Shown piece after piece: positions 42,666 to 56,601 of a stretch of 64,000 bases of DNA (within the stretch, counting starts at the first letter, position 1; each line of letters begins with the position of its first letter). Made by a program: the position numbers and the translations under genes. This DNA comes from an uncultured Pelagibacteraceae bacterium (GTDB lineage Bacteria > Pseudomonadota > Alphaproteobacteria > Pelagibacterales > Pelagibacteraceae): assembly GCA_902582315.1 (NCBI GenBank), contig CACHRP010000003.1:84207-148206 (forward strand), given 5' to 3'. The notes below the pieces were generated by a model. That model searched no databases. It was not told the DNA's origin and worked only from the letters and a program-made list of their open reading frames with translations.

Positions 42666-43055
42666 ATGAATAAAATACTTATTGAAGTTTCGGTTGGTGA
42701 ATTATTAGATAAAATTTCTATTCTTGAAATTAAAAAGGAAAAAATTAAAGATCAACATAAACTAAAATTTATTAATGAAGAGCTTGAATTATTAACAGAA
42801 CAATTCAAAAAAAATATAAAATCAGACAATAAACTTGATAAACTTTTTCAGTCACTTAAAGAAATAAATAATAAACTTTGGAATATAGAAAATGAAAAAA
42901 GATTATGCGAAAAAAATGCAGATTTTGGAGAAGTCTTTATTAAAACATCAAGAGATATACATTTTCTAAATGACGAGAGAGGAAAAATTAAGCTTGAAAT
43001 GAACAGTCATTCTGGATCTAAGATCAGAGAAATTAAAGAGTATACATCATATTAA
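42666..43055 (+). CDS. DUF6165 family protein
   Basis: The 129-residue protein begins ILIEVSVGELLDKISILEIKKEKI and is predicted to be mostly helical with a coiled-coil-like centre, matching the DUF6165 family as I recall it. Members often occur beside glycosyltransferase genes, as here. The function is unknown. It shares TTAA with the stop of the convergent ABC permease gene. Confidence 0.8.
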   Translation: MNKILIEVSVGELLDKISILEIKKEKIKDQHKLKFINEELELLTEQFKKNIKSDNKLDKLFQSLKEINNKLWNIENEKRLCEKNADFGEVFIKTSRDIHFLNDERGKIKLEMNSHSGSKIREIKEYTSY

Positions 43056-43723
43056 TAACTGTATTTTTTCTCTAAAAACTTAATGACATTATGAATTATA
43101 AAAGTCATGAAAAGATAAATCCCACCAGCAACTATAAATACTTCGATTGGCTTGAATGTTGTGGATATTATGTATTTCGCTACACCTGTGAGATCCATCA
43201 AAGTTACGGTGCTTGCTAACGAGGTACCCTTCATCATTAAAATTATTTCATTACCATAAGCTGGTAAAGATTGTCTTATAGCGATGGGAATTTGGATTTT
43301 ATAAAAAATAATTTTACTGGAAATTCCTAAACTCTGACCTGCTTCAATCATTCCAGGTTTTATTGTTTGAAATGCAGATCGTAATATTTCAGATGTGTAA
43401 GCTCCTGTATTCAATGAAAAAGCAATAATTGCGCACCAATAAGGCTCTTTTAAAATAACCCATAACGCTGTTGATCTTAAATATTCTATTTGACCTAGCC
43501 CAAAATAAATAATGAATATTTGAACTAAAAGTGGTGTCCCTCTAAACACATAAGAATAAACGTAAGCAAATTTATTTATTATTGGATTTTTATTTAACCT
43601 TATAATTGCAAAAAAAAGCCCGATAAATAATCCAAAGATTAATGATGCAGTTAATAATTTAAGAGTTATAAAAGTAGCATTTAACAGTTTAGGTAAACTA
43701 TTAATCATTAATTCAAAATCCAT
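43052..43723 (-). CDS. Polar amino acid ABC transporter permease (HisM type)
   Basis: The 223-residue inner-membrane protein has about five helices and the EAA loop EAGQSLGISSKIIFYKIQIPIAIRQSLPAYGNE near residue 135. The start LLNATFITLKLLTASLIFGLFIGLFFAIIRL fits HisM/OccM. It overlaps the partner permease by one base. No ATPase gene follows, because the next gene is convergent. Confidence 0.93.
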   Translation of the reverse strand: MDFELMINSLPKLLNATFITLKLLTASLIFGLFIGLFFAIIRLNKNPIINKFAYVYSYVFRGTPLLVQIFIIYFGLGQIEYLRSTALWVILKEPYWCAIIAFSLNTGAYTSEILRSAFQTIKPGMIEAGQSLGISSKIIFYKIQIPIAIRQSLPAYGNEIILMMKGTSLASTVTLMDLTGVAKYIISTTFKPIEVFIVAGGIYLFMTFIIHNVIKFLEKKYSY

Positions 43724-44415
43724 TAATACCCCCTACTGTATCTAACTTCTAATTTATTGATTAACTTCATGCTAAAATATGTCAGCATTAGATATAATAC
43801 TGCCGCAAATGAATAAAAAAATAAAGGATCTCTAGTTGATCCAGCAGCAATATAAGATTGTCTCATTATTTCGACTAAACCAGTCACAGAGATAAGTGAG
43901 GTATCTTTCAGTGTTATTTGCCAAACATTACTCAAATTAGGAATAGCAAGTCTTAACATTTGGGGCATAATCACTTTAAAAAAATGAACTGGTTTTTTTA
44001 AACCTAAAACCTTTGAGGCCTCAAATTGTCCTTTATCAATTGATTGAATTGCTCCTCTAAAAACTTCTGTTGAATAAGCTCCTGAGATGATACCAATTGC
44101 AAAAGATCCAGTGATAAATGCGTTGATTTCAATATACTCATTATATCCAAATATAGAAGCAACATACATAACTGCTCCACTTCCGCCAAAGAAAAATAAA
44201 TAAATAACCAATAATTCAGGAACTCCTCTGATAACTGTGGTGTAAGAGTTTCCTATAAGATTTAAAAATTTACTTTTGGATAATTTAAGTGGGGTAAATA
44301 TTAAAGCAAAAAGAAAACCTATAAACATAGCTGTTATTGAAACAGCAATTGTCATCATTGTTGCGATTAACAGTTCATCGCCCCAACCAGTTTTTCCGAA
44401 TGAAAGAAGTTCCAT
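43723..44415 (-). CDS. Polar amino acid ABC transporter permease (HisQ type)
   Basis: The 230-residue protein has the EAA loop EASKVLGLKKPVHFFKVIMPQMLRLAIPNLSN and TVIRGVPELLVIYLFFFGG, typical of HisQ/OccQ. With the HisM-type partner it would form the membrane channel for the substrate captured by the upstream binding protein. A stem-loop lies between it and that gene. Confidence 0.93.
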   Translation of the reverse strand: MELLSFGKTGWGDELLIATMMTIAVSITAMFIGFLFALIFTPLKLSKSKFLNLIGNSYTTVIRGVPELLVIYLFFFGGSGAVMYVASIFGYNEYIEINAFITGSFAIGIISGAYSTEVFRGAIQSIDKGQFEASKVLGLKKPVHFFKVIMPQMLRLAIPNLSNVWQITLKDTSLISVTGLVEIMRQSYIAAGSTRDPLFFYSFAAVLYLMLTYFSMKLINKLEVRYSRGY

Positions 44416-44421
44416 ACAGAC

Positions 44422-44446
44422 TGGCGACTATATATTATAGTCGCCA
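44422..44446 (-). terminator. Intercistronic stem-loop after the ABC binding-protein gene
   Basis: TGGCGACTATA-tat-TATAGTCGCCA is a perfect 11-bp inverted repeat with a three-base loop, in the 44-bp gap between the binding-protein stop and the permease start. No T-run follows, so it is more likely an mRNA-stabilising or attenuating hairpin than a strong terminator. Confidence 0.65.
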
Positions 44447-44459
44447 AATCTAAAATTAT

Positions 44460-45287
44460 TTACATAGATGCATCGAAGCCGAACCACTTAGTAGCAATTC
44501 TACTAATGTCGCCGTTCTTTCTTGCTTTATCGATTGCTTTATTAAAAGCGTTTAGTAACTCTGTGTCATCTTTTCTTATACCAACACCTACACCATTACC
44601 AAATGCACCACCTGAAAAAGTTGGTCCAACTAATACAACTGGTTTACCTGATTTTTCTGCATAATCACTAAAAGCTACAGCGGCAGCTAATGCAGCATCA
44701 CATCTTCCAGATGCTAAATCTAAGTTAACTTCGTCTTGAGTTTTATATGTTCTCACATTTACTTTTCCAACATCACCAGAGTCTAAAAAGTTTTGGTGAA
44801 TTGTTGCAGTTTGCACACATACTGTTTTACCTGCTAAAGCAGCAGTCAAAGTTTTAAGAGCTTTTTTTGCTGCAGCATTCGGTTTAGTAAGATTAATTCC
44901 AGCCGGTGTATCCATGCCCTCTAAATCTGAACCTTTCATTACAGCTAATGAAGCAACCTCGTCAGCATATCCTTGAGAAAAACTAATTGCTTTTTGTCTT
45001 TCAGCAGTAATAGACATTCCAGCCATTATAGCATCAAATTTTCTCATGATTAGAGCTGGTATCATACCATCCCAATCTTGCTCAACTATCTCACATTGCT
45101 GACCTATATATCTACAAAGTGTCCAAGCAAGCTCAACCTCAAATCCAATTAGTTTGCCTGAAGCATCTTTTGAATTCCAGGGAGGGTACGCACCTTCTGT
45201 TCCAATTTTAATTTTATCAGCGTTAGCAGAAAATGATAAAAATAAAGTAATCAAAACTCCTAAGCTAAATTTTTTTATAATATTCAT
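44460..45287 (-). CDS. ABC transporter substrate-binding protein, lysine/arginine/ornithine type
   Basis: The 275-residue periplasmic protein has a signal peptide (MNIIKKFSLGVLITLFLSFSANA, cleavage near 23). KIKIGTEGAYPPWNSKDASGKLIGFEVELA, DWDGMIPALIMRKFDAIMAGMSIT and the late GVGVGIRKDDTELLNAFNKAI match the HisJ/ArgT/OccT group. TTGGAGGCGAT before the ATG is among the best ribosome-binding sites in the window. It lies 57 bp after the SpeD-SpeE gene on the same strand. A basic amino acid ligand is likely but inferred from family. Confidence 0.92.
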   Translation of the reverse strand: MNIIKKFSLGVLITLFLSFSANADKIKIGTEGAYPPWNSKDASGKLIGFEVELAWTLCRYIGQQCEIVEQDWDGMIPALIMRKFDAIMAGMSITAERQKAISFSQGYADEVASLAVMKGSDLEGMDTPAGINLTKPNAAAKKALKTLTAALAGKTVCVQTATIHQNFLDSGDVGKVNVRTYKTQDEVNLDLASGRCDAALAAAVAFSDYAEKSGKPVVLVGPTFSGGAFGNGVGVGIRKDDTELLNAFNKAIDKARKNGDISRIATKWFGFDASM

Positions 45288-45344
45288 ATCGCCTCCAATA
45301 TTTTTTTAATAAGTATTTCACAATTTAAAAGATTTAAAAAGAAA

Positions 45345-46385
45345 TTATTTATTTAATGCAGATGCAAAATTCCAAGAACAATCAAAACTTGGTATGTAGA
45401 TTCTATCTAAGGATGTATTGCCAAAGCTTTTTTCAAATAAACTGAGCCATTTTTTAACTTGTTTAGGTTTTTTATCCTGGCTTCCAACCTGTGCAGTTAT
45501 TGTTCCATTTGGCTTCAAAATTCTTTTAAGTGAATTTATATTTTTTGCAGCGAGATCAATACAGTACTGATCATCATTAAGGTCTACGAATATTTTATCA
45601 TATTTATTATCTTCAATTTTTTTAATACTTTCAAATGCATCGCCCCAAACGCACTTAACTGAATTTTTTGTTGTAGCTTTTTTACCTATTTTACTTAAGT
45701 GTTTTTCACATACTTCGACCACTTCAGGATCTAACTCAAACCAGTCTATATAATTAAATCCTTGTGATATGCATTCTCTAGCAACACCCCCATCACCACC
45801 ACCAATAATTGCAGATTTATCTTTTTGAGGATTTAATTTAATACCAGAATTAACGAAAGTTGAACTGTACAAATGCTCATCGCTCTCAGCAACTTGAAGT
45901 TCATTATCAATAAATAAAGACTTTCCAAACTGTTCAAGATTTAAAATTTCAATGTGTTGGCCAACTTTGGAGTTAAAGTCTTCCAAAATATCTTTTACCA
46001 AATAATACTTTTTTAGTCCTGGCGAACTATAAATGTCATCATAGTAAATAATGTTGTCTCTGTTAAATTCTTTTTTAACAATTTTTTTATATTTAATATC
46101 TTTTTTAATAATATCTAAAGCGACGATAGGGTTAACTTTTCCACATGTAAAAAAATCGAAACTTATAATTCCTTTTTCAGGAAAAGTATGAAAACTAATA
46201 TGACTTTCAGCCAAAAGTGCAACAAGAGTAAATCCCTGGGGTTCAAACTTATACTTTGATATTTCTAATACAGTAACTTTAGCTTTTTTTGCAATTTTGT
46301 AGACTAATTTTTCAAAGAATTGTGGCTCATATTCTTTAGTTGTACCTATGATATCTAGTGTTATATGTTCACCAACTTTAGTCAT
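45345..46385 (-). CDS. Fusion of SpeD-like pyruvoyl decarboxylase and SpeE-like aminopropyltransferase
   Basis: Residues 1-120 match prokaryotic S-adenosylmethionine decarboxylase: LLAESHISFHTFPEKG gives the Glu60-Ser61 self-cleavage site that makes the pyruvoyl group, and DFFTCG gives Cys81. Residues 125-346 match spermidine synthase: IIGGGDGGVARE (195-203), DWFELDPEVVEV, WGDAF (247-251) and VDLNDD, which keeps both acidic positions of the usual D-S-[ST]-D. The normal Y-H-E-M segment reads Y-S-S-T, so amine specificity may differ. Known family behaviour allows either AdoMet decarboxylation or, in neofunctionalised SpeD homologues, arginine or ornithine decarboxylation. The gene follows MTA-salvage genes. 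Confidence 0.88.
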   Translation of the reverse strand: MTKVGEHITLDIIGTTKEYEPQFFEKLVYKIAKKAKVTVLEISKYKFEPQGFTLVALLAESHISFHTFPEKGIISFDFFTCGKVNPIVALDIIKKDIKYKKIVKKEFNRDNIIYYDDIYSSPGLKKYYLVKDILEDFNSKVGQHIEILNLEQFGKSLFIDNELQVAESDEHLYSSTFVNSGIKLNPQKDKSAIIGGGDGGVARECISQGFNYIDWFELDPEVVEVCEKHLSKIGKKATTKNSVKCVWGDAFESIKKIEDNKYDKIFVDLNDDQYCIDLAAKNINSLKRILKPNGTITAQVGSQDKKPKQVKKWLSLFEKSFGNTSLDRIYIPSFDCSWNFASALNK

Positions 46386-46392
46386 AAAAAAT

Positions 46393-47052
46393 TTAATTTC
46401 TTTTATAATTTTTTGTTTTATCTAAGATTTTTTTCATTTCTTCATCTGAAAGAATCTTAGGATTACCTAACTTTATTGTATTTATATATTGATGACAAAT
46501 ATTTTCGATCTCTTCTGCAAGCTCAAACGCTTCACTGAGGGATTTGCCAAATGCAACCTGACCATGATTAGACATAAGACATGCTTTTCTTCCATCTAGG
46601 GCCTTAATAATGTTTTGAGATAATTCTTTGGTTCCAAAGGTTGCATATTCTGCACACTTTATGTTATTTCCGCCAGCTAAAGCGACCATGTAATGAAATG
46701 CAGGAATATTCTTGCCATGAGCTGAAACAGCTGCAGCATTAGCCGAATGAGCATGGACTATCGCATGAGCATCCCTTTTTTTTATGTAAATATCTTGATG
46801 AAAACGCCATTCAGAAGATGGATTAATAACCTTATCTGAAATTTTTTTTATATTATTATTTTCGTTTAATTCTAAAAAAACAATACTATCTGCAGTTAGA
46901 TCATCGTATTTTACTCCGGAAGGTGTAATGAAGAAACCTTCAACTCCATCATTGAATCCTCTCATTGAAATATTACCAGACCTCAAAGGCGAAAGGTTTT
47001 CAGTATTAAGTTTTTTTGCATACTCAATTACTTCTTTCTTTATTTCTAACAT
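46393..47052 (-). CDS. Class II aldolase, FucA/Ald2-like
   Basis: The 219-residue zinc aldolase closely follows the L-fuculose-phosphate aldolase pattern: GNISMR, FFITPSGVKYDDL, PSSEWRFH with Glu81, VHAHSANA with His100 and His102, IPAFHYMVALAGGNNIKCAEYATFGTKELS and SNHGQVA with His163. This is FucA-like rather than like the MtnB dehydratase. Sitting downstream of mtnP and mtnA, it most likely cleaves 5-methylthioribulose 1-phosphate to DHAP and 2-methylthioacetaldehyde, as Ald2 does in the known DHAP shunt. It starts on the same base where the small membrane ORF ends. Confidence 0.88.
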   Translation of the reverse strand: MLEIKKEVIEYAKKLNTENLSPLRSGNISMRGFNDGVEGFFITPSGVKYDDLTADSIVFLELNENNNIKKISDKVINPSSEWRFHQDIYIKKRDAHAIVHAHSANAAAVSAHGKNIPAFHYMVALAGGNNIKCAEYATFGTKELSQNIIKALDGRKACLMSNHGQVAFGKSLSEAFELAEEIENICHQYINTIKLGNPKILSDEEMKKILDKTKNYKRN

Positions 47053-47255
47053 TATTTTTTAAGTTTTTTATTAATCTCTCTTTCACAAAAAGATTTGATA
47101 TCATCAATATTTTTACTCTTATCTAATTTTTTTTGGGCAATAATGCATGCTTTCATAGATTTATCTAAACTATGAGATCCATACTCGATTCTTGATATAT
47201 AAAGCATAATAAACGCTATAATCAAAAAAAGTATAAAATATAAATTTTTTTTCAT
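47052..47255 (-). CDS. Small membrane protein of unknown function in the MTA-salvage operon
   Basis: The 67-residue product has one hydrophobic helix (residues 4-20, LYFILFLIIAFIMLYIS) and then a charged segment with two cysteines (ACIIAQKK and SFCEREINKK). It overlaps mtnA by four bases and the aldolase gene by one, so it is firmly built into the operon. I know no family. It could be a membrane-anchored periplasmic peptide with one disulfide. Confidence 0.68.
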   Translation of the reverse strand: MKKNLYFILFLIIAFIMLYISRIEYGSHSLDKSMKACIIAQKKLDKSKNIDDIKSFCEREINKKLKK

Positions 47256-48322
47256 TTGAATAAATTTTTAATTCCCTCAATTGATGCATCGCAAACCCCT
47301 TTTTCAGTAATCAAACCTGTTATATATTTAGCTGGAGTTACATCAAAAGCTAAGTTCATTGCTTTACTTTTTTTTGGATAAATTTGTACTTTTTTAACAT
47401 TCCCTTTATCGTCTAATCCTTCAATGTATGATAGTTCCTCAGAATTTCTCTCCTCTATAGGAATATCTTTATGATCTTTGATATTCCAGTCAATTGTAGA
47501 ACTAGGTAGTGCTACATAAAAAGGAATATTATTATCTTTTGCTGCCAAAGCTTTAAGATAAGTACCAATTTTATTACAAACATCTCCATTTGCTAAAGTT
47601 CTGTCTGTTCCAACAATACACATATCAACTTTTCCCCTTTGCATTAATAATCCTCCAGTATTATCTGCAATTACTGTATTTGGGACATACTCTTCATTAA
47701 GTTCAAATGATGTAAGATTTGCTCCTTGGTTTCTTGGTCTTGTCTCATCTACCCATACATGCAAGGGAATTCCTTTCTTGTGTGCGTGATATATAGGAGA
47801 GGTTGCAGTTCCCCAATTTATTGTTGCAAGCCACCCTGCATTACAATGTGTTAAAATATTAATAGTATCTTTTTTTTTATTATGGATCTCCTCAATTATT
47901 TTTAAACCATGTAATCCGATCTTTTCGCAAAATTTTTCATCCTCCTCAGCAATTTCTTTAGCTTCATTTAAAGCGATTTCAAAAATTTTATTTATATTCA
48001 CTCCTGAAATTTTTTTCATCATTCTGTCGACAGCCCATTTTAAATTTATTGCTGTAGGTCTTGATTTAATTAAGTCATTTGCTGAGTTTTTTAAAAAAGA
48101 TTGATCTTTATTTTCTAAAATAGATAACACAAGCCCATAAGCAGCTGTGGCTCCTATCAATGGTGCGCCTCTCACCTCCATTACTTTAATTGCATTAACT
48201 GCATCTTTTATAGTTTTAATATCCTTAATTACAAATCTATGAGGTAGTTTTGTTTGATCAATTATTTTGACAATATTATTTTCAAACCAAATTGTACGAT
48301 ATTCCTTTTGCTCAATTTTCAT
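47252..48322 (-). CDS. mtnA: S-methyl-5-thioribose-1-phosphate isomerase
   Basis: MtnA converts methylthioribose 1-phosphate to methylthioribulose 1-phosphate. The 356-residue protein has MEVRGAPLIGATAAYG (50-63), the catalytic Cys160 in ILTHCNAGWLAT and the catalytic Asp240 in IVGTDRTLANGDVCNKIGTY. These separate it from eIF2B-like relatives. It follows the GFA gene by one base and precedes the aldolase, placing two sequential steps together. Confidence 0.95.
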   Translation of the reverse strand: MKIEQKEYRTIWFENNIVKIIDQTKLPHRFVIKDIKTIKDAVNAIKVMEVRGAPLIGATAAYGLVLSILENKDQSFLKNSANDLIKSRPTAINLKWAVDRMMKKISGVNINKIFEIALNEAKEIAEEDEKFCEKIGLHGLKIIEEIHNKKKDTINILTHCNAGWLATINWGTATSPIYHAHKKGIPLHVWVDETRPRNQGANLTSFELNEEYVPNTVIADNTGGLLMQRGKVDMCIVGTDRTLANGDVCNKIGTYLKALAAKDNNIPFYVALPSSTIDWNIKDHKDIPIEERNSEELSYIEGLDDKGNVKKVQIYPKKSKAMNLAFDVTPAKYITGLITEKGVCDASIEGIKNLFK

Positions 48323-48323
48323 T

Positions 48324-48773
48324 TTATATTCTATCTAAACTTTTTTTTGGCCAAGTTTTATCTCTGTCATAATATTTATCATAACAAATTTTTTTATTAC
48401 TTATTTCTATCCATGGATCCTTATCTTTCACAAAAATATGAGCTTGTGGGGTAATTGAATTTTCTAGAGTTTGAGTTCTGATTGCAATTCTGCCTTGTGA
48501 AATGTTATATTTGCAATAAACGTAAACACCACAAATAATACAAAAATAAGCATTCACTCCTTTCCCACTACCTGTAGGAAGTTCTATAGATGCAACATCA
48601 CCCTTGACTTCTAAGTCTTTTTCTAAAATCATAGTGTGAATAACAAAAGATGATCCGGTAGAAATTTTACAATCCTTGCAATGACATGCCTGTGTAAATA
48701 ATGGCTCATCTTTTATGATATATTTTACATTTCCACAACCACATCTACCCTTAAGTTCTTTTTTTTTTGTCAC
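48324..48773 (-). CDS. GFA (glutathione-dependent formaldehyde-activating enzyme/CENP-V) family protein
   Basis: The 149-residue zinc protein shows the GFA cysteine set: GRCGCGNVKY, QACHCKDCKISTGSSF and YFCIICGVYVY. Members bind glutathione-aldehyde adducts in the founding enzyme, but most are uncharacterised. It overlaps mtnP by four bases and is one base from mtnA, so it is embedded in the MTA-salvage run. A role with the reactive aldehyde released by the aldolase is my inference, not established. Confidence 0.88.
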   Translation of the reverse strand: MTKKKELKGRCGCGNVKYIIKDEPLFTQACHCKDCKISTGSSFVIHTMILEKDLEVKGDVASIELPTGSGKGVNAYFCIICGVYVYCKYNISQGRIAIRTQTLENSITPQAHIFVKDKDPWIEISNKKICYDKYYDRDKTWPKKSLDRI

Positions 48774-49639
48774 TTTCCCAAAACTCTCCCAGCAATATTT
48801 TTTAGTTTTTTTATAGTTTCTTTTGTTCTTTTTTCTGGAGCAGTAATTATTGCTACATCTAAACAGTTATTAGTTGGGTCATTTGGATCAATATACTCTT
48901 CATAATTGTCTATTAAATTTTTAATCATTTCTTTCGCTTTAGCTGCATTATCTAAAAGAACTTTTATAACTTTTTGAACATCTACATTTTCATGATCCGG
49001 ATGCCAACAGTCATAGTCGGTTACCATTGATACTGATGCATATCTAATTTCAGCCTCTCTAGCTAATTTTGCTTCAGGCATATTCGTCATTCCAATGACA
49101 TCAGCTTTCCAGTCTCTATATAGATTAGATTCTGCAAGTGTTGAAAATTGTGGGCCCTCCATAACAACATATGTACCCCCTCTTTGATAATCTATATTAG
49201 ATTTTTTAATTGACTCTTCGCAAGCATTCATCAGACCATTAGATGTGGGGTGAGCCATTGAAACATGTGCAACTATTTCATCATCAAAGAAAGTTTTATT
49301 TCTTGCAAAAGTACGATCAATAAATTGGTCTACGATGACAAACTTTCCTGGTGGTAAATTTTCCTTCAAAGATCCAACAGCAGATATCGAGACAATATCG
49401 GATACTCCTAATTGTTTTAAAGCATCAATATTTGCCCTAAAATTTATTTTAGAAGGTGAAATAAAATGTCCTTTACCGTGCCTTGGTAAGAAATAAACTT
49501 CTTTTTCATTATATCTCGTTTTTAATATTTTATCTGATGGATTTCCCCATGCTGTTTTGATTTCTAAAAACTCACGATCTGCAAATTCTTCTACATCATA
49601 CAAGCCACTTCCACCTATTATTGCTAATTTATTTGTCAT
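48770..49639 (-). CDS. mtnP: S-methyl-5'-thioadenosine phosphorylase
   Basis: MtnP splits methylthioadenosine with phosphate into adenine and methylthioribose 1-phosphate. The 289-residue protein has the phosphate loop AIIGGSGLYD, RHGKGHFISPSKINFRANI, VMEGPQFSTLAESNLYR and the purine-site region GMTNMPEAKLAREAEIRYASVSMVTDYDCW. It is the first gene of the leftward operon, and the divergent apt gene, 40 bp away, would recycle the adenine it releases. Confidence 0.95.
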   Translation of the reverse strand: MTNKLAIIGGSGLYDVEEFADREFLEIKTAWGNPSDKILKTRYNEKEVYFLPRHGKGHFISPSKINFRANIDALKQLGVSDIVSISAVGSLKENLPPGKFVIVDQFIDRTFARNKTFFDDEIVAHVSMAHPTSNGLMNACEESIKKSNIDYQRGGTYVVMEGPQFSTLAESNLYRDWKADVIGMTNMPEAKLAREAEIRYASVSMVTDYDCWHPDHENVDVQKVIKVLLDNAAKAKEMIKNLIDNYEEYIDPNDPTNNCLDVAIITAPEKRTKETIKKLKNIAGRVLGK

Positions 49640-49679
49640 ATTATTTAAAATGATTTAATTATTTATATCGTAAAAATTT

Positions 49680-50207
49680 ATGGATTTAAAAGATTATATT
49701 AGATCAATACCTGATTATCCAAAAAAGGGAATTTTATTTAGAGACATAACAACTCTAATTAAAAATGAAAAAGCATTTGCATATTGTATAGAGCTAATTG
49801 AAGAAAAATCTCAAAAGTTTACTTTTAATAAAATTGCAGCAATAGAATCTAGGGGCTTTGTTTTTGCATCAGCAGTTTCATATTTAGTAAAAAAACCATT
49901 TATAATGTTAAGAAAAAAAAATAAGCTTCCCGCTGAGACTCACTCTGTAGATTTTAAATTAGAGTATGGGGATGCAACCATTGAAGTACACAAAGATTCT
50001 ATGAAAAAAAATGATAAAGTTCTTATAATTGACGATCTTATAGCTACTGGAGGTACTGCTGAAGCTGCAGCTAAACTAGTAGATTTATCTGAGGCTTCTG
50101 TCGCAGGTTTTATTTTTGTTATAAATTTATATGATTTAGGTGGTTGCAACAATTTAATAAAACAAGGTCATTTAGTTGAAAATTTAATAGAATTTCCTGG
50201 TCACTAA
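49680..50207 (+). CDS. apt: Adenine phosphoribosyltransferase
   Basis: Apt makes AMP from adenine and PRPP. The 175-residue protein begins DLKDYIRSIPDYPKKGILFRDITTL, has ESRGFVFASAVSY and the PRPP loop VLIIDDLIATGGTAEAAAKL (near residue 116). It is divergent from mtnP across 40 bp, which must hold both promoters, and it completes adenine salvage from methylthioadenosine. The next glycan gene starts three bases after its stop. Confidence 0.96.
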   Translation: MDLKDYIRSIPDYPKKGILFRDITTLIKNEKAFAYCIELIEEKSQKFTFNKIAAIESRGFVFASAVSYLVKKPFIMLRKKNKLPAETHSVDFKLEYGDATIEVHKDSMKKNDKVLIIDDLIATGGTAEAAAKLVDLSEASVAGFIFVINLYDLGGCNNLIKQGHLVENLIEFPGH

Positions 50208-56524: not shown

Positions 56525-56601
56525 TGGTAGCGGGAAGTGGGATCGAACCACTGACCTCGGGCTTATGAGTCCCGCGCTCTAACCAACTGAGCTACCCCGC
56601 C
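56525..56601 (-). tRNA. tRNA-Met (CAT), elongator type
   Basis: The minus strand reads GGCGGGGTAGCTCAGTTGG...CTCATAAG...GGTTCGATCCC...CCA, 77 bases with encoded CCA. The cloverleaf forms: acceptor GGCGGGG with TCCCGCT (G1-U72 wobble), anticodon stem CGGGA/CCCG flanking CTCATAA, and a T-loop TTCGATC. The CAT anticodon with this acceptor stem fits elongator Met rather than initiator (no C1-A72 mismatch) or tRNA-Ile2, although Ile2 with a modified C34 cannot be fully excluded. Confidence 0.92.

What the first reader, a model, noticed from the sequence alone, without database searches (positions are those of the whole stretch)
43052..50207. Polyamine synthesis, MTA recycling and adenine salvage in one block
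Seen: apt is divergent from mtnP; mtnP, a GFA protein, mtnA, a 67-aa membrane protein, a FucA-like aldolase, a SpeD-SpeE fusion, a basic-amino-acid-type binding protein and two permeases follow on one strand with overlaps or small gaps. Established: SpeE-type reactions release methylthioadenosine; MtnP gives adenine plus methylthioribose 1-phosphate; MtnA isomerises it; Apt reclaims adenine; Ald2-type aldolases cleave the product to DHAP and methylthioacetaldehyde. Inference: the block is a self-contained producer and recycler, with the importer feeding the amine precursor. The combination with the fusion enzyme and GFA protein may be undescribed.
Basis: partly seen in the sequence, partly recalled or inferred. 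Interest (0 to 1): 0.82.

Follow-up and report, generated by a model that had tools for sequence, protein, structure and literature searches.

The report
SAR11 polyamine-byproduct salvage locus, three versions
A SAR11 marine bacterium keeps the fused enzyme that makes the polyamine spermidine next to enzymes that dispose of its toxic sulfur byproduct, and related strains have repeatedly swapped one disposal kit for another at this spot, including a fused aldolase-dehydrogenase for which I found no earlier link to this pathway.

Summary
The gene block is real and conserved. In Pelagibacterales the order is apt | mtnP - mtnA - class II aldolase - SpeD/SpeE fusion - Arg/Lys-type binding protein - two permeases. 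mtnD, mtnK and RuBisCO-like genes are missing (no hit above cut-off in 118 genomes), so the aldolase is the only recognisable route onward: the known DHAP shunt. Its nearest counterparts are mtnP-apt-mtnA-aldolase operons in other Proteobacteria. The SpeD-SpeE fusion was already known in SAR11. GFA is not core but variable cargo at the mtnP-mtnA junction.

New here: three kits occupy this site and never co-occur in one genome: (A) FucA/Ald2-type aldolase (64 genomes), (B) a fused aldolase/short-chain dehydrogenase (14), (C) a short MTA-nucleosidase-like protein replacing mtnP, mtnA and aldolase together (10). Of 84 SpeD-SpeE genomes, 83 carry exactly one. The kits switched at least about 10-12 times. 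Kit B's enzyme also sits beside mtnP-mtnA or mtnK-mtnA in Tistrella, Pararhizobium, Shinella, Mariluticola and Agrobacterium: a predicted aldolase-dehydrogenase DHAP shunt. Genome lengths suggest HTCC1062 carries C and HTCC7211 carries A, so the prediction is testable in culture. No enzyme was assayed.

The parts
49680..50207 (+). apt, adenine phosphoribosyltransferase (divergent; reclaims adenine)
   Evidence: TIGR01090 193 bits, cut-off 186; divergent next to mtnP in most of 60 relatives and next to the nucleosidase in kit C
48770..49639 (-). mtnP, MTA phosphorylase
   Evidence: TIGR01694 305 bits, cut-off 275
48324..48773 (-). GFA-family Zn protein; variable cargo, probably not part of the pathway
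   Evidence: Pfam GFA 89 bits; present only in own locus, L062, L063, L065 and L234; the same junction holds PhyH, tautomerase or hydrolase-fold genes elsewhere
47252..48322 (-). mtnA, MTR-1-phosphate isomerase
   Evidence: TIGR00512 424 bits, cut-off 279; co-occurs with an aldolase of kit A or B in 77 of 78 genomes
47052..47255 (-). 67-aa membrane protein, lineage-specific, function unknown
   Evidence: no family hit; relative in 6 of 61 SAR11 loci
46393..47052 (-). class II (FucA/Ald2-type) aldolase, predicted 5-methylthioribulose-1-phosphate aldolase (kit A)
   Evidence: Aldolase_II 169 bits; catalytic residues matching FucA N29, S71, S72, E73, H92, H94, Y113, H155 kept; model pLDDT 94, best PDB match FucA then DrdA 6btg; below the MtnB model cut-off (60 of 137 bits)
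45345..46385 (-). SpeD-SpeE fusion (AdoMet decarboxylase + aminopropyltransferase); the MTA source
   Evidence: TIGR03330 96 bits, cut-off 76; Spermine_synth 74 bits; in 84 of 118 genomes
44460..45287 (-). substrate-binding protein, Arg/Lys type
   Evidence: 8hqr 445 bits; 78% identical to the G011 ortholog, which matches 8hqr over the mature chain
43723..44415 (-). ABC permease (ArtQ/HisQ type)
   Evidence: BPD_transp_1 58 bits, ArtQ best NCBIfam model below cut-off
43052..43723 (-). ABC permease (ArtM/HisM type); no ATPase gene follows
   Evidence: BPD_transp_1 76 bits, ArtM best NCBIfam model below cut-off

Best explanation
The block is a polyamine-synthesis and byproduct-disposal locus. 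SpeD-SpeE makes triamines from decarboxylated AdoMet and releases MTA, which inhibits growth if it accumulates. MtnP phosphorolyses MTA to adenine and MTR-1-P, Apt returns adenine to AMP, MtnA makes MTRu-1-P, and the class II aldolase cleaves this to DHAP (three carbons back to central metabolism) and 2-methylthioacetaldehyde: the known DHAP shunt. The aldolase step is filled either by the FucA/Ald2-type enzyme (kit A, this window) or by a fused aldolase/SDR (kit B), predicted to oxidise the aldehyde at once to methylthioacetate, as RhaEW oxidises lactaldehyde. Kit C discards the sugar instead: a short nucleosidase yields adenine and free methylthioribose. The kits behave like alleles of one site. 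Shown: gene content, order, mutual exclusion, repeated switching, conserved catalytic residues. Inferred: substrates, SDR direction, fate of the sulfur.
For: Order conserved in 60 relatives. MtnA accompanies a kit A or B aldolase in 77 of 78 genomes; A, B and C never co-occur; kit C never occurs with MtnP or MtnA; 83 of 84 SpeD-SpeE genomes have exactly one kit. On a SpeD-SpeE tree the three states need 12 changes; well-supported branches force at least 10 for A, 7 for B and 5 for C. MtnD 0/118, MtnK 0/118 and RuBisCO-like 0/118 above cut-off. Kit A homologs lie with mtnA in 68 of 80 contigs from the A1 search, 19 of which also have apt. Catalytic residues and fold of FucA/DrdA. Kit B enzyme: 902 bits to NF006192 (cut-off 639), aldolase and SDR residues invariant, beside mtnP-mtnA or mtnK-mtnA in G010, Tistrella, Pararhizobium, Shinella, Mariluticola and Agrobacterium MA01. 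Kit C protein keeps MtnN E12, E174, D197. Pathway biochemistry: PMC5893883, PMC10986504, PMC6079011, PMC3870299.
Against: No enzyme was assayed. FucA-type aldolases are promiscuous, and sequence does not separate MTRu-1-P, 5-deoxyribulose-1-P and fuculose-1-P aldolases: this one is 41% identical to FucA and 35% to E. coli Ald2. fucI/fucK and mtnB/mtnC were not searched for. Kit B relatives in R. etli, R. leguminosarum, S. meliloti and A. salinitolerans lie in other loci, and the kit B tree does not unite the mtn-linked rows. The kit C family model is below its curated cut-off (94 of 129 bits). Switching may be recombination of pre-existing alleles rather than independent gains, so the count of changes is not a count of inventions.
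Confidence: 0.82

Rival explanations
1. The locus disposes mainly of 5'-deoxyadenosine from radical SAM enzymes (the DrdK/DrdI/DrdA pathway), not of MTA.
For: DrdA-type clusters with a phosphorylase are described as 5-deoxyribose disposal (PMC6079011); DrdA is a close fold match; G010 has apt-mtnP-mtnA-kit B without SpeD-SpeE.
Against: 76 of 78 MtnA-positive genomes have SpeD-SpeE, and only 2 of 34 SpeD-SpeE-negative genomes have MtnA; SpeD-SpeE is the immediate neighbour. The enzymes probably take both substrates.
Confidence: 0.12
2. The aldolase is an ordinary fuculose- or rhamnulose-phosphate aldolase that happens to sit here.
For: Best NCBIfam models are L-fuculose-phosphate aldolases; 41% identical to E. 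coli FucA.
Against: All those models are below cut-off; E. coli Ald2 is itself labelled fuculose-phosphate aldolase; near-perfect co-occurrence with MtnA and replacement by a second class II aldolase at the same site.
Confidence: 0.05
3. The three kits are unrelated inserts at a gene-insertion hot spot and are not functionally equivalent.
For: The mtnP-mtnA junction does collect unrelated cargo.
Against: Cargo genes co-occur with a kit, whereas kits exclude one another completely; kit B genes cluster with mtn genes in unrelated Alphaproteobacteria; each kit is predicted to consume MTA or its product.
Confidence: 0.04

Closest known systems
DHAP shunt (MtnP-MtnA-Ald2) of Rhodospirillum rubrum and Rhodopseudomonas palustris; MtnK-MtnA-Ald2 of E. 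coli ATCC 25922/S88
   Same: Same enzyme families and predicted steps; mtnP-apt-mtnA-aldolase operons in Parvibaculum, Tepidicaulis, Hyphomicrobium and others are the nearest seen here.
   Different: In SAR11 joined in one locus with SpeD-SpeE, apt divergent, no mtnK, RuBisCO-like or mtnD; the organisms are marine and depend on reduced sulfur. The aldolase is only 35% identical to E. coli Ald2; R. rubrum and R. palustris Ald2 sequences were not compared.
Drd 5-deoxyribose disposal pathway (DrdA, PDB 6btd/6btg)
   Same: FucA-like aldolase with isomerase and phosphorylase/kinase; same fold.
   Different: The Bacillus system uses a kinase; no SpeD-SpeE.
RhaEW / YuxG bifunctional L-rhamnulose-1-P aldolase / lactaldehyde dehydrogenase
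   Same: Kit B has the same two domains with conserved catalytic residues; RhaEW oxidises the aldehyde with NAD+ (PMC3870299).
   Different: Kit B genes are linked to mtnP/mtnA/mtnK, whereas that paper reports its RhaEW orthologs always within rha loci; TIGR02632 score 441 is below its cut-off of 568.
SAR11 SpeD-SpeE fusion (Green et al. 2011, Mol Microbiol)
   Same: The same fused enzyme, reported active and broad in substrate (as cited in PMC8437039).
   Different: No coupling to MTA disposal mentioned in the passages read; the Green paper itself is not held.

Membership tests
DHAP shunt (phosphorylase type) | MtnP and MtnA present above curated cut-offs | tested here: met
   (305 of 275 bits; 424 of 279 bits)
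DHAP shunt (phosphorylase type) | class II aldolase with FucA-type catalytic and metal residues, linked to mtnA | tested here: met
DHAP shunt (phosphorylase type) | aldolase cleaves MTRu-1-P to DHAP + methylthioacetaldehyde | not testable with these tools
   needs an enzyme assay
Canonical methionine salvage (MtnB-C-D) | MtnD (ARD) in the genome | tested here: not met
   0 of 118 genomes above cut-off, own genome no match
Canonical methionine salvage (MtnB-C-D) | the aldolase-family protein is MtnB | tested here: not met
   TIGR03328 60 bits, cut-off 137
Canonical methionine salvage (MtnB-C-D) | mtnB or mtnC elsewhere in the genome | not tested
   no search run; without mtnD the route would be incomplete
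MTA-isoprenoid shunt | RuBisCO-like protein | tested here: not met
   PF00016 0 of 118
Kinase-type DHAP shunt (E. coli) | MtnK | tested here: not met
   0 of 118 above cut-off
RhaEW (kit B) | TIGR02632 RhaD_aldol-ADH equivalog score | tested here: not met
   441 bits, cut-off 568; NF006192 is met, 902 of 639
RhaEW (kit B) | class II aldolase residues plus SDR Asn-Ser-Tyr-Lys residues | tested here: met
   N49, E125, H139, H141, H200 and N509, S562, Y575, K579 invariant
MTA/SAH nucleosidase (kit C) | catalytic E12, E174, D197 of E. coli MtnN | tested here: met
   alignment
MTA/SAH nucleosidase (kit C) | score above curated model cut-off | tested here: not met
   NF004168 94 bits, cut-off 129

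The most novel reading that the evidence does not exclude
A fused aldolase/dehydrogenase version of the DHAP shunt exists (kit B), cleaving MTRu-1-P and oxidising 2-methylthioacetaldehyde to methylthioacetate in one protein, and SAR11 populations carry three functionally interchangeable MTA-disposal kits as alleles of one site beside SpeD-SpeE, so that strains differ in whether they keep or discard the sugar and sulfur of MTA.
Probability: 0.65. Interest if true: 0.68.

Novelty: new variant of a known kind. Interest (0 to 1): 0.58.

Why it matters
SAR11 are among the most abundant ocean bacteria and need reduced sulfur. The fate of the methylthio group of MTA affects their sulfur budget and possibly methanethiol release. 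A 2018 survey of MtnP-MtnA-Ald2 organisms called them mostly terrestrial (PMC5893883); here the set is the commonest state in a marine order. The aerobic step from methylthioacetaldehyde or methylthioethanol to methanethiol was unidentified in that work, and kit B's dehydrogenase suggests a different branch.

Tried and rejected
GFA as a pathway enzyme: rejected, 4 of 61 SAR11 loci plus L234, with other cargo at the same junction. Aldolase as MtnB: rejected on score. Riboswitch or other Rfam RNA in the window: only a tRNA at 56528-56601. Single-sequence structure model: useless, pLDDT 43; a 30-sequence alignment gave 94. Literature: 'SAR11 + methylthioribose' found only the polyamine paper and a riboswitch survey; nothing found joined a bifunctional aldolase/SDR with MTA or 5-deoxyribose, but many subscription papers are not held. 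The 2024 SAR11 binding-protein study I remember was not found. R. rubrum and R. palustris Ald2 did not appear among the 80 loci, so E. coli S88 Ald2 was used. Kit B tree: mtn-linked rows need two changes, so a single origin of the mtn role is not claimed.
Full report
Observation. MtnA, MtnP, Apt and the SpeD half pass curated NCBIfam cut-offs; the SpeE half matches Pfam Spermine_synth but is below the NCBIfam speE cut-off; the aldolase, GFA protein, permeases and binding protein match their Pfam families; the 67-aa protein matches nothing. The window lies in a 1.18-Mb, 91% complete genome whose named relatives at this locus are Pelagibacteraceae.

Conservation. I fetched 60 related loci and read their gene order. 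The core is apt divergent from mtnP - mtnA - aldolase - SpeD/SpeE, usually followed by SBP - permQ - permM. In the genera coded g2, g4 and g5 the transporter is absent; in most of those loci a CN-hydrolase (deaminated-glutathione-amidase-like) follows SpeD/SpeE directly. GFA occurs only in this window, L062, L063 and L065, and in L234 among named loci. Elsewhere the same mtnP-mtnA junction holds PhyH, tautomerase, dienelactone-hydrolase or peptidase-like genes. GFA is therefore cargo.

Three kits. In aldolase-negative genomes the site holds one of two things. Kit B is an antiparallel gene of about 677 aa, a fused class II aldolase and short-chain dehydrogenase (NF006192, 902 bits against a cut-off of 639). 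Kit C is a protein of about 175 aa of the PNP_UDP_1 family that replaces mtnP, mtnA and aldolase together; its best model, PRK05634 nucleosidase, scores 94 against a cut-off of 129, but E12, E174 and D197 of E. coli MtnN are kept. Counting in 118 genomes (tallied): A 64, B 14, C 10, with no genome holding two. MtnA co-occurs with A or B in 77 of 78 cases; the exceptions are G116 (MtnA, no aldolase found) and G036 (aldolase at a contig edge). C never occurs with MtnP or MtnA. Of 84 SpeD/SpeE genomes, 83 have exactly one kit; G081 has mtnP on a 3.5-kb contig. On a 61-locus SpeD/SpeE tree the kits need 12 changes; well-supported branches force at least 10 for A, 7 for B and 5 for C. SAR11 recombine, so these may be allele swaps; either way one kit has taken another's place many times.

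Route. Three ways onward from MTR-1-P or free methylthioribose were tested: MtnD, RuBisCO-like protein and MtnK have no hit above cut-off in the 118 genomes. mtnB and mtnC were not searched; without mtnD that pathway would be incomplete. The window aldolase keeps the FucA residues N29, S71, S72, E73, H92, H94, Y113 and H155, as do the other SAR11 rows wherever the column is filled. Its model (pLDDT 94) is closest to FucA and then DrdA. It is below the MtnB model (60 of 137 bits). Its homologs lie with mtnA in 68 of 80 contigs found with an alignment of mtnA-linked aldolases (the query set favours such loci), and in 22 of 27 class-level loci MtnA is visible in the short flanks. These are the trio known as the DHAP shunt (PMC5893883, PMC10986504) and as 5-deoxyribose disposal (PMC6079011).

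Kit B outside the SpeD/SpeE locus. In G010, a genome of another family of the order without SpeD/SpeE, the order is apt-mtnP-mtnA-kit B on one strand; on Tistrella mobilis pTM3 it is mtnP-mtnA-kit B. On plasmids of Pararhizobium, Shinella, Mariluticola and Agrobacterium MA01 it lies with a sugar ABC transporter and mtnK-mtnA. Relatives in R. etli, R. leguminosarum, S. meliloti and A. salinitolerans lie in other loci, three of them with sugar ABC genes and two of those also with glycerol-phosphate genes. The tree groups the SAR11 proteins with G010 but does not unite all mtn-linked rows. RhaEW, the characterised relative, makes DHAP and lactate and needs NAD+ (PMC3870299); by analogy kit B should yield methylthioacetate. 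That direction is inference.

Cultured strains. Genome lengths in PMC3815206 match the single contigs of G011 to HTCC1062, G013 to HTCC7211, G026 to HIMB5 and G007 to HIMB114 (contig lengths). G011's binding protein is identical to PDB 8hqr over the mature chain; that 8hqr is the HTCC1062 Arg/Lys-binding protein SAR11_1210 is from memory. So HTCC1062 and HIMB5 carry kit C, and HTCC7211 and HIMB114 kit A.

What stays open. Whether sulfur returns to methionine is unknown; MetY could use methanethiol (PMC5069961), but its release from methylthioacetaldehyde is not assigned. The importer has no ATPase gene here. Two Orn_Arg_deC-family genes were found in the genome: LysA, and a second, non-LysA one beside a deoxyhypusine-synthase-like gene on another contig; other putrescine routes were not searched.

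Verdict. Known parts (DHAP shunt, SpeD/SpeE fusion) in a conserved new combination, plus an apparently undescribed fused aldolase/dehydrogenase version and a three-way kit exchange: a new variant of a known kind.

Noticed in passing
L115, L076, L079, L113, L283, L286 (mtnP-mtnA junction): The junction between mtnP and mtnA collects unrelated genes (GFA, PhyH dioxygenase, tautomerase, dienelactone-hydrolase or peptidase-like proteins) in 16 of 47 fetched loci with both genes.
   Followed up: partly
L287 8186-13617 (Pararhizobium qamdonense plasmid p3): mtnK-mtnA is followed by split DXP-synthase/transketolase genes and a RuBisCO-large C-terminal-like protein, beside a kit B gene: both a shunt and an isoprenoid-type route in one cluster.
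   Followed up: no
L273 65-2283 (own genome, C1): A non-LysA Orn_Arg_deC-family gene lies beside a deoxyhypusine-synthase-like gene that passes the cut-off for 1,9-bis(guanidino)-5-aza-nonane synthase (580 of 500 bits).
   Followed up: partly
L071-L076, L114-L121 and others, downstream of permM or SpeD/SpeE: A CN-hydrolase (deaminated glutathione amidase-like, 261-275 aa) often ends the block in relatives but is absent from this window's block.
   Followed up: partly
L280 5530-6618 (G009): A genome with no SpeD/SpeE match still keeps the short nucleosidase beside apt; its length suggests the freshwater LD12 isolate (from memory).
   Followed up: no
window 56528-56601, - strand: tRNA gene, the only Rfam match in the window.
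   Followed up: no
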